DNA of 64,000 bases. Origin: Thermolongibacillus altinsuensis. Its GTDB lineage: Bacteria > Bacillota > Bacilli > Bacillales > Anoxybacillaceae. Shown here piece after piece: positions 1,325 through 52,560 of this stretch. Positions within the stretch are counted from its first letter, which is position 1; every line of letters starts with the position of its first letter. The position numbers and the translations under genes are program-made. The stretch lies in assembly GCF_004341205.1 (NCBI RefSeq), contig NZ_SLUL01000003.1:1-64000 (forward strand). Direction: 5' to 3'. The notes beneath the pieces are model-generated. The model ran no database searches. It was not told the origin of the DNA and saw only the letters and a list, made by a program, of their open reading frames with translations.

Positions 1325-1352
1325 TTTCTAATCCTTTGAGAGGATGGTGAGA

Positions 1353-1892
1353 ATGCTTAAGCGCCATTATTTTTTGGCGGTTTCCATACCCGATGATGTA
1401 AAAGAACGATTAGGGCAATTCGCTCGGCAACTTGAAGCGCCATTTAAAACATGGGTTTATCCGCAAGATTATCACATCACACTTGCTTTTTTAGGCAGTG
1501 CTTCGAAAGAGCAATTGCAACAGGTGAGTAAAAATGTTTCGGAAATCGTCAAAAGACATGAAAAGTTCTCGCTTGAGTTGAGCAACCTTCATTCGTTTGG
1601 TTCGCGTATTTTATGGTATGGGGTTCACCATGAAGAACGGCTTTTTCAACTTCAAAAAGATGTATATGAAGCTTGTAAAAAAGTTGGGTTTTCGTTAGAT
1701 GAGCGACCATTTACTCCTCATATTACATTGGCGCGAAAGTGGATGGGGGAGTCATCGATTGAAAACGATTTATTCAGAGAAAAAATAAGGGAAACGATTC
1801 GCTTTGCCGTAACAGAGGTTGTACTGTATGAAACCCATTTAGACAAATTGCCGAAGTACAAACCGCTCATACGTTTTTCTCTCTCAGATTAA
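1353..1892 (+). CDS. thpR: RNA 2',3'-cyclic 3'-phosphodiesterase (2'-5' RNA ligase family)
   Basis: Two-histidine phosphoesterase of about 179 residues, the YtlP/ThpR family. The two HxT motifs are visible: HITLAFLG at residue 41 and HITLAR at residue 123. They form the bipartite active site that opens 2',3'-cyclic phosphates on RNA; ligase activity has been described in vitro for relatives, but the physiological role is unclear. ATG 1353 is preferred because the Shine-Dalgarno GAGAGG (1338-1343) is nine bases upstream; ATG 1344 abuts it. Likely a soluble cytoplasmic protein. It matches the B. subtilis ytlP position, just before ytlQ. Confidence 0.88.
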   Translation: MLKRHYFLAVSIPDDVKERLGQFARQLEAPFKTWVYPQDYHITLAFLGSASKEQLQQVSKNVSEIVKRHEKFSLELSNLHSFGSRILWYGVHHEERLFQLQKDVYEACKKVGFSLDERPFTPHITLARKWMGESSIENDLFREKIRETIRFAVTEVVLYETHLDKLPKYKPLIRFSLSD

Positions 1893-1942
1893 AGTGAGGA
1901 AAACAGTGGGTGAAGAAATTCGTTTTCACGTTTTTGCAAATA

Positions 1943-2162
1943 TATAGATTCAAGTTGAGTTTCCGACATATCTCATCATGAATAGAAGACTACTTTTCTG
2001 CCATAGGCGGCAAGATTTTTCTTGCCGCCCCGGCATGCTAGAAGCATGCCGATTCCGAACGTAAAACGCATGACAGACAAATTCATTTGTCTGATGGCGT
2101 TTTCGTTCGGAGAAGTGGCAGAAAAGCTTGTTTATGTCGAAAAATTAAACTTATCATATATA
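1943..2162 (+). repeat. Palindromic structured repeat, copy 1 (full-length form)
   Basis: A 220-base element between thpR and ytlQ. Its ends (1941-1970 and 2133-2162) are imperfect inverted repeats, sharing TATA and TCGACATA or CCGACATA. Inside, CTTTTCTGCCA (1993-2003) pairs with TGGCAGAAAAG (2116-2126). That stem encloses three hairpins: GGCGGCAAG/CTTGCCGCC (2007-2029), CGGCATGC/GCATGCCG (2031-2051), and a long one from CCGAACG (2055) to CGTTCGG (2110) with an inner CAGACAAAT/ATTTGTCTG. Most of this recurs at 52315-52457, and part at 8936-9010. No transposase is encoded. It could be a MITE-like element or a repeated structured RNA. Confidence 0.85.
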
Positions 2163-2386
2163 GGAAGATTAGATCGGCACGGTCATTCAGCATTTTTGCT
2201 CGCTTATTGGTTGAACTTAGAACCGAGCGTCATCCGATCGCTCACTCCAAAGTGACATCCCCAGCGGCGATGACGTTAAGCGCTGTCTTTGCGGCGCTTC
2301 TTTGTCCGTTGTTGCTTCTATTGTAGAACGAAATTCAGTCGACTATTATTGAATGTGTACGGACTTGTGTTGTTGGAGGAATGCTT
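2163..2386. other. Non-coding stretch upstream of ytlQ
   Basis: Between the repeat and ytlQ. Short frames run through it (one ends at 2255, another at 2326), but they begin inside the repeat, lack ribosome binding sites and resemble no known protein. A minor hairpin AGCGC/GCGCT lies near 2280-2298. No promoter could be named with confidence. Confidence 0.4.
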
Positions 2387-3340
2387 GTGGGACAGCTCAT
2401 TAAACTTCAAGATTATATTTCGCGCTATGAATTAGACGTTTATCATTATCCGAGCGAGTTTATTCGATTAAAGAAAAAGCAATGGGAACGGGTGAAGCAA
2501 GCATGGGAAAGCAGTCAACTTTCCGCTTCCATGCAACAAGTCGATTCGTGGAAATGGATGGAACAAGAAACTTCGCTTTTTTCTAAAATCAAAAATTTAT
2601 GGAAAAGATCAAATGAAGAAATTGAAGAACAGAGCAATGAAGAAAAAGAGGGCGAATTTTCTTTTACTTTCACAACGGAGCCAAAGTCAATCGAAGATTT
2701 AAAATTTTTATTTCTAGAGAAATTGTTTCGTTTGCAAATTCGTTGGGCGAGTTCGACGTTGACGGAAGAATCGCTCGTCGATCAAAAATATTATTACGAT
2801 CCTTACTTAAAATACTTTTTGCAGCGCTTTCCTGATACGTATTTGTGCATGTATAAGCCAATTTTTTTATTAAAAAAGGCACCTGTAGAATTAGAAACGA
2901 TTTTAATTAGTCCGACGACGACATGGTGCTTAACCTTTGTCGAAGGGCGAAAGGATAACATTATTGTTGGTTCGGCGGATCGTTTTTGGACGGAAATGAT
3001 CAATGATCAAGAAAGGAAGATGTTGAATCCGCTTCTTGCTCTTAACCGAACAGAAAAAATTGTCAAAAAAATATACGAACATTTTGCGATTGATATGCCT
3101 GTAAAAAAGGTTATTATCAATCGTCAAGGGTACATTGAATATCGCTATGCACCAAGCGATTTGGAAATCATCGATCGGCGCAATTATGACATGTGGTTTT
3201 CTTCGCTTCGCCAGCTGACTTTGCCGCTGAAACATGTGCAATTAAAAGCGGCACAAGCGCTTTTGCACTATTGTGATGCTCACTATTATGACAGAATCGA
3301 ATGGGAAGAAGTTGAAGAGGAAGAAGAGGCTGATTCGTGA
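2387..3340 (+). CDS. ytlQ: Conserved protein YtlQ, function unknown
   Basis: Soluble, charged protein of about 317 residues beginning MGQLIKLQDYISRYELD and ending in a glutamate-rich tail (EEVEEEEEADS). It is placed as YtlQ by position between thpR (ytlP) and amyX and by its opening sequence. No catalytic motif, signal peptide or membrane segment is visible; residues about 65-90 are also highly acidic. GTG 2387 is chosen because GGAGGA (2375-2380) lies six bases upstream, whereas it touches ATG 2381. A terminator hairpin overlaps the last codons. Function is unknown. Confidence 0.8.
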   Translation: MGQLIKLQDYISRYELDVYHYPSEFIRLKKKQWERVKQAWESSQLSASMQQVDSWKWMEQETSLFSKIKNLWKRSNEEIEEQSNEEKEGEFSFTFTTEPKSIEDLKFLFLEKLFRLQIRWASSTLTEESLVDQKYYYDPYLKYFLQRFPDTYLCMYKPIFLLKKAPVELETILISPTTTWCLTFVEGRKDNIIVGSADRFWTEMINDQERKMLNPLLALNRTEKIVKKIYEHFAIDMPVKKVIINRQGYIEYRYAPSDLEIIDRRNYDMWFSSLRQLTLPLKHVQLKAAQALLHYCDAHYYDRIEWEEVEEEEEADS

Positions 3341-8770: not shown

Positions 8771-8935
8771 TTTGATTCCTCCGCTTTTTCTTTATAGTAT
8801 ACCTAATTGTCGGAGTGGAAACCATGAGTAAAATTCGATAAAATGACAAATAGCACACGAGTGTTGATGATCCATTATTTTACTACTAAAGGACGAATGA
8901 TGGCGATAAAATAAGCTTGTGCAGGAATATATATT

Positions 8936-9010
8936 CATGCTTTTTTGCCGTGCGTATCGCATGCCAGGGGCGGCAAGCAAATGCTTGCCGACTTCGGCAG
9001 AAAAGCGATG
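8936..9010 (+). repeat. Degenerate copy 3 of the palindromic repeat
   Basis: Upstream of ytoP. Outer arms CATGCTTTTTTGCCG (8936-8950) and CGGCAGAAAAGCGATG (8995-9010) pair with few mismatches. They enclose TGCGTATCGCA and a perfect CGGCAAGC/GCTTGCCG hairpin (8971-8990). It shares GGCGGCAAG, CTTGCCG and GGCAGAAAAGC with copy 1, in the same order. The outer inverted ends of copies 1 and 2 are missing. Homology is likely but not certain. The rest of 8771-9067 holds no gene. Confidence 0.6.
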
Positions 9011-9067
9011 TTTTTTATTGGTTAATCAACGCGCCTGCTAATAGCGAACGGGAAAGGGGTATAAAAG

Positions 9068-33124: not shown

Positions 33125-33367
33125 ATAAATGGGCGATGAAGGGAAGAAGTAGTGTTTATCTCCCTGCTTTCAGAGAGCTGATGGTTGGTGCGAATCAGCG
33201 CAAAGATAAACATGAATTACGTCCTGGAGCATCTTTTGTGAACGGCTTGGCCAAGTAGCAAAAGACGGTGAAAACCGTTATCTCAATGAGTGAGAGAACG
33301 TCTTGTTCTCTAAGTAGGGTGGTACCGCGATTACAACTCGTCCCTTCGTATTGGGGCGAGTTTTTTT
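33125..33367 (+). promoter_or_regulatory. Tyrosine T-box riboswitch of tyrS
   Basis: Leader with the invariant T-box AGGGTGGTACCGCG (33316-33329) that pairs with the uncharged tRNA end. The probable specifier codon is TAC (33218-33220, in GAATTAC), read by tRNA-Tyr. A GGTTGGTG loop lies in stem I. The terminator AACTCGTCCC/GGGGCGAGTT with seven T (33335-33367) competes with the antiterminator. Tyrosine starvation should raise tyrS expression. Confidence 0.95.
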
Positions 33368-52314: not shown

Positions 52315-52457
52315 TATAGATTCAAGTTGAGTCCGACATATCTCATCATGAATAGAAGACCGCTTTTCTGCCATAGGTGGCAAGAAAAATTTTGCCGCCC
52401 CGGCATGCTAGAAGCAGAAAAGCTTGTTCATGTCGGAAAATTAAGCTTATCATATAT
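52315..52457 (+). repeat. Palindromic structured repeat, copy 2 (internally deleted)
   Basis: Closely matches copy 1 at 1943-2162, including CCGACATATCTCATCATG, CTTTTCTGCCATAGG, CCCCGGCATGCTAGAAG and the right end GAAAAGCTTGTT. It lacks the 74 bases equivalent to 2047-2120, with GCA at both edges of the missing part, consistent with deletion between short repeats. The TIRs and the CTTTTCTGC/GCAGAAAAG stem remain; the third hairpin is lost. It lies 155 bases before argG. Confidence 0.9.
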
Positions 52458-52560
52458 TCACTATTTTACTAAAAAGAAAGAAAATAAGCCAATTTTAAAA
52501 TTTTTTATCATAACTATTGAAAAAAAAGAAAATAGCTGATAAATTGGTAATATATTTAAA

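What the first reader, a model, noticed from the sequence alone, without database searches (positions are those of the whole stretch)
1943..2162. Dispersed palindromic element with nested hairpins (full-length copy)
Seen directly: imperfect terminal inverted repeats of about 30 bases, an inner CTTTTCTGCCA/TGGCAGAAAAG stem, and three side hairpins. A close relative lies 50 kb away and a degenerate one at 8.9 kb. No open frame or transposase fits. The branched fold, rather than only the ends, appears conserved. Inference: either a MITE mobilised in trans or a repeated structured RNA or DNA element. Known Bacillus repeats such as bcr are of similar size, but I cannot equate them.
Basis: partly seen in the sequence, partly recalled or inferred. 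Interest (0 to 1): 0.7.

Follow-up and report, generated by a model that had tools for sequence, protein, structure and literature searches.

The report
Hairpin-filled IS630-type mini-transposon (MITE)
The repeat is a short, gene-less "jumping" DNA element present about 70 times in this bacterium's genome, apparently moved by an IS630-family transposase, and it carries a three-hairpin core that also turns up inside mini-transposons with quite different ends, with hairpin loops that have repeatedly been flipped in place.

Summary
Window 1943-2162 is a full-length copy of a 222-bp repeat (69 core hits in the 2.9-Mb genome, 40 near-full-length at 90-100% identity) with a very stable branched fold (z = -11 as RNA, -13 as DNA). 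It is best read as a MITE. Its ends match the right ends of the genome's own IS630-family elements, both ends abut TA, all 38 copies whose two flanking genes could be called are intergenic, and one copy is absent at the orthologous site in a related species. What exceeds an ordinary MITE is the ~135-nt three-hairpin core. It occurs in 28 of 41 genomes of the bacterial family (8 of 9 genera), inside three chassis with different ends: IS630 type A (here), IS630 type C (with a diverged core 2), and a 9-bp-duplication type B whose transposase I could not find. The window's "degenerate copy" at 8.9 kb is a type-B chassis, so one genome holds both. Stems show compensatory changes (13 of 48 pairs). 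The loops of all three hairpins occur in both orientations: the signature of template switching at DNA hairpins, which can produce covariation without RNA function. No Rfam match; no description found in the searchable literature.

The parts
1941..1942 (.). TA, left copy of the presumed TA target duplication (within TATATA)
   Evidence: left 6-mer before GATTC is TATATA in 25 of 38 scored copies; fits IS630 TA targets (established knowledge)
1943..2160 (+). MITE body, chassis A: TATAGATTCAAGTTGAGTTTCCGACAT ... ATGTCGAAAAATTAAACTTATCATATA
   Evidence: homology of 40 near-full-length genomic copies starts and stops here
1947..1971 (+). left terminal repeat; 19/24 identical to the right end of a decayed IS630 (L129) in the same genome
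1993..2126 (+). conserved core (outer stem + three hairpins)
   Evidence: CM R1 142.5 bits; core shared by 28 of 41 family genomes
1993..2004 (+). outer stem 5' arm CTTTTCTGCCAT; its first 8 pairs (CTTTTCTG/CAGAAAAG) invariant in the 21 cores of A1
2006..2029 (+). hairpin 1 (GGCGGCAAGA-TTTT-TCTTGCCGCC); loop found flipped to AAAA in 7 own copies
2031..2051 (+). hairpin 2 (CGGCATGCTAGAAGCATGCCG); loop found flipped to TTCTA in 7-8 own copies
2054..2111 (+). hairpin 3 (long, TCCGAACG...CGTTCGGA, tip CAGACAAATTCATTTGTCTG)
2115..2126 (+). outer stem 3' arm GTGGCAGAAAAG
2134..2160 (+). right terminal repeat; the copies' consensus right end also matches the IS630 right end (16/19 to L129)
2161..2162 (.). 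TA, right copy of the presumed TA target duplication
52318..52458 (+). second chassis-A copy, core internally deleted
8856..9037 (-). chassis-B copy (CAGGCG/CACGAG ends) with internally deleted core
   Evidence: approximate 9-bp duplication AAATAGCA / CTAATAGCG (2 mismatches)

Best explanation
It is a non-autonomous transposable element (MITE) mobilised in trans by IS630-family (Tc1/mariner-like, HTH_33 + DDE_3) transposases that recognise its imperfect terminal repeats and insert it at TA. Inside it is an older three-hairpin palindromic core that has been shared or exchanged among several MITE chassis with different ends. The hairpins form as DNA on single strands, for example the lagging strand. 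Polymerase template switching between the arms keeps the arms complementary and flips the loops, so the fold stays intact without necessarily acting as RNA. Shown here: repeat number, matching ends, TA flanks, core sharing between chassis, compensatory changes, loops in both orientations. Inferred: transposition in trans, template switching as the cause, the route of core exchange.
For: About 70 copies. Ends match IS630 right ends L127/L129 (p 0.0005-0.005 by shuffling), while a second IS630 subgroup (L128) matches chassis C instead. Transposase domains identified. TATATA flanks at both ends of most copies. All 38 copies with two callable neighbours are intergenic. Orthologous site in G016 lacks the element. 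Core in 28/41 family genomes with other ends; chassis B with perfect 9-bp duplications; both chassis in this window. Compensatory pairs 13/48, 0 of 500 shuffles reach it. Loops of all three hairpins in both orientations, all four hp1 x hp2 combinations in one genome, at least 6 and 7 changes on the tree of own copies. Template switching is known to give both loop inversions and compensatory changes (PMC8794818).
Against: No intact IS630 with exactly these ends was found in the genome: L127 lacks the MILDNARIHHA segment with a catalytic Asp, L129 is decayed, and the A. pushchinoensis copy has a stop in orfA. The TA duplication rests on flanking sequence, not on an exact empty site, because the orthologous site in G016 has diverged at the junction. 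Within the genome most stem changes are single-sided (96 broken, 50 wobble, 11 double), so arm repair is not fast. Flip counts come from a poorly resolved tree of similar short sequences, and exchange between copies could inflate them.
Confidence: 0.8

Rival explanations
1. The core is a selected structured RNA (for example a regulatory or protein-binding RNA) that has been picked up by several transposon chassis; the covariation reflects RNA function.
For: Fold conserved across 8 genera with compensatory changes, an outer stem whose first 8 pairs never vary in the aligned cores, and the same hairpin order in core 1 and core 2.
Against: No promoter-like site and one weak terminator-like site; no clear orientation bias relative to co-directional genes (9 same, 14 opposite); loops occur flipped, which an RNA with loop contacts would hardly tolerate; many copies have the core partly deleted; no Rfam match.
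Confidence: 0.15
2. The core is itself the mobile unit (a palindromic element with CTTTTCTGCC/GGCAGAAAAG ends) that inserted into different MITE chassis.
For: Same core in chassis with different ends, and core-like sequence without recognisable chassis ends beside siderophore-transport genes in G004 and G008.
Against: Bases just outside the core (CTTGT on the 3' side) are shared by chassis A and many chassis-B copies, so the boundary is not sharp at the stem; no partner enzyme for a core-only move was sought or found; in chassis B the whole ~249-bp unit moves with 9-bp duplications.
Confidence: 0.08
3. It is a REP/BIME-like palindrome kept for a structural role in the host (supercoiling, mRNA ends).
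For: High copy number, intergenic, palindromic.
Against: 222 bp with terminal repeats and TA flanks; no enrichment between convergent genes (5 of 38); recent near-identical copies.
Confidence: 0.04

Closest known systems
RUP of Streptococcus pneumoniae (107 bp, ends like IS630-Spn1)
   Same: Many copies of a short palindromic repeat with ends matching an IS630 element of the same genome; stable predicted fold (PMC3049150)
   Different: RUP is about half the size; here a three-hairpin core is shared with chassis of other end types
bcr1 of the Bacillus cereus group
   Same: Similar size, stem-loop rich, dispersed in a Bacillales genome (PMC2267715)
   Different: No sequence comparison was made; bcr1 is described as specific to the B. 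cereus group (title of its 2004 description, cited in PMC2267715)
IS630 family (HTH_33 + DDE_3, TA target)
   Same: Terminal sequences and TA flanks
   Different: No transposase in the element; the matching IS copies seen here are defective
BOX / EFAR modular repeats
   Same: Short repeats built of stem-loop modules (BOX: PMC3049150; EFAR modularity recalled from memory)
   Different: Here the internal module stays and the ends change

Membership tests
MITE mobilised by IS630 | short, no open frame, many near-identical copies | tested here: met
   222 bp, 40 copies at 90-100%
MITE mobilised by IS630 | terminal repeats matching an IS630 of the genome | tested here: met
   19/24 and 16/19 identities to L129, p 0.0005
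MITE mobilised by IS630 | TA target duplication | tested here: inconclusive
   TA at both ends in most copies but no exact empty site
MITE mobilised by IS630 | intact partner transposase | tested here: inconclusive
   L127 and the A. pushchinoensis copy are defective, L129 decayed; only end-mismatched L128 looks intact by eye; the search used one 50-aa query
MITE mobilised by IS630 | transposition observed | not testable with these tools
   needs bench work
any Rfam 15 RNA family | score above gathering threshold | tested here: not met
bcr1 (B. cereus group) | sequence homology | not tested
   no bcr1 sequence was fetched
ISfinder entry | match to a named entry | not testable with these tools
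   ISfinder not held

The most novel reading that the evidence does not exclude
A structured three-hairpin core behaves as an exchangeable module that moves between transposon chassis served by different transposases, kept in shape by template switching or by an RNA/DNA function of its own, across a whole bacterial family.
Probability: 0.3. Interest if true: 0.75.

Novelty: new variant of a known kind. Interest (0 to 1): 0.5.

Why it matters
MITEs are normally defined by their ends; here the inside is what is conserved while the ends have been replaced. The many copies with flipped loops look like a natural record of template switching at DNA hairpins in one genome, and a warning that compensatory base changes in repeated palindromes are not by themselves proof of a functional RNA.

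Tried and rejected
IS200/IS605-type mobilisation (suggested by the asymmetric ends) was dropped when the IS630 ends were found. ISL3-like elements with GGCTCTTC ends inside chassis-B copies of G019 were first taken for the partner, then recognised as guests that inserted into the MITE (family assignment from the ends and ORF by eye, not by an HMM search). A search for a non-MITE carrier of the B ends in 41 genomes found three matches, none examined further and at least one a MITE already in hand. Two viral-contig pattern hits (L125, L126) are chance matches. No match of the B element in phages. A terminator role: no orientation or convergent-gene bias. A single-copy look-alike in another family (L142, G152; 46 bits) is not repeated there and stays unassigned.

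Full report
OBSERVATION. The structure described at 1943-2162 is present. The strand folds at -98.5 kcal/mol as RNA (z -11.1) and -62.3 as DNA (z -12.9), with the outer arms, an inner CTTTTCTGCCA/TGGCAGAAAAG stem and three hairpins. No Rfam family matches.

COPIES. The genome (2.9 Mb, 39 contigs) holds 40 near-full-length copies at 90-100% identity, 70 left ends with up to 3 mismatches and 69 covariance-model hits to the core. Boundaries are sharp: TATATA|GATTC on the left, CATATATA on the right. All 38 copies for which a gene could be called on both sides (a crude ORF call) lie between genes: 23 co-directional (9 in the gene direction, 14 against), 10 divergent, 5 convergent. One copy (L017) is missing at the orthologous place in G016, though the exact junction has diverged. 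Many copies are truncated or internally deleted; the 52-kb window copy and L121 have the same deletion junction.

MOBILISER. In Anoxybacillus pushchinoensis K1 an IS630-type transposase gene abuts a truncated copy. The window's genome has a related IS630 (L127), a decayed one (L129) and a second subgroup (L128); Pfam gives HTH_33 for the L127 and L128 first frames and DDE_3 for the A. pushchinoensis second frame. The right ends of L127 and L129 match both ends of the element (19/24 and 16/19 identities to L129; p 0.0005 to 0.005), whereas L128 matches the ends of a different MITE chassis, C, and not these. L127 has lost a segment with a catalytic aspartate and the A. pushchinoensis copy has a stop in orfA, so no intact partner with these ends was seen. 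A TA target and a two-frame transposase fit IS630 as generally described (established knowledge).

CORE AND CHASSIS. In relatives mostly only the inner ~135 bases match. There the ends are CAGGCGTGTTGATTAACCA...TGGATAATCAACACTCGTG (chassis B), flanked by perfect 9-bp duplications in 60 of 106 strand-rows, most elements being listed on both strands. The window's 8.9-kb 'degenerate copy' is chassis B, so this genome holds A and B. A third chassis, C (TATATAGATGCAA ends), carries core 2 with another outer stem (TTTTCGACTGTCG) but the same three hairpins in the same order. The core is in 28 of 41 genomes and 8 of 9 genera of the family; in 300 genomes of the class only this family and one weak single-copy hit matched. 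Named carriers on plasmids are Anoxybacillus amylolyticus, Geobacillus stearothermophilus and G. kaustophilus HTA426. The transposase of chassis B was not found.

WHY THE FOLD PERSISTS. Across 21 cores 13 of 48 pairs show changes on both sides, reached by 0 of 500 shuffles (such shuffles do not correct for relatedness). But the loops of all three hairpins occur as exact reverse complements of each other (for example AAGATTTTTCTT and AAGAAAAATCTT; GCATGCTAGAAGCATGC and GCATGCTTCTAGCATGC), all four hp1 x hp2 combinations exist in one genome, and the flips need at least 6 and 7 changes on a tree of own copies and 8, 3 and 5 in the relatives (short, similar sequences, and exchange between copies could inflate this). 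Template switching between hairpin arms is known to produce loop inversions and compensatory changes (PMC8794818). So covariation here does not by itself show RNA function. Within the genome, paired positions differ from the consensus at 2.6%, other unpaired positions at 4.2% and the two flipping loops at 15.8%.

COMPARISON AND VERDICT. The nearest described kind is RUP of pneumococcus, a short repeat with ends like an IS630 element (PMC3049150). Seven literature searches found no description of this element in Anoxybacillus or Geobacillus; most subscription journals are not held, so it may be known. Best reading: an IS630-type MITE (0.8) carrying an old, shared three-hairpin core; a functional RNA core is possible (0.15).

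Noticed in passing
window 33127-33348: T-box leader (Rfam RF00230, 166 bits).
   Followed up: no
window 1344-1892: Gene just upstream of the element encodes a LigT/2'-5' RNA ligase-like protein; the downstream gene (2381-3340) has no Pfam match.
   Followed up: partly
L186, L190 (G019): ISL3-like elements (GGCTCTTC ends, 424-aa ORF) inserted inside chassis-B MITEs; L190 also has a chassis-C-type element nested in a chassis-B MITE.
   Followed up: partly
L051, L101 (G004, G008): Core-like remnants without recognisable chassis ends, at the same place downstream of a siderophore-binding-protein-like gene.
   Followed up: partly
L130 (G000:C9:115967-116056): IS630 fragment directly next to a truncated element left end near a contig end, as in A. 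pushchinoensis; possibly an insertion hot spot.
   Followed up: no
L142 (G152): Single-copy three-hairpin look-alike outside the family, tip GAGCAAATGAATTTGCTC, no repeat copies in that genome.
   Followed up: partly
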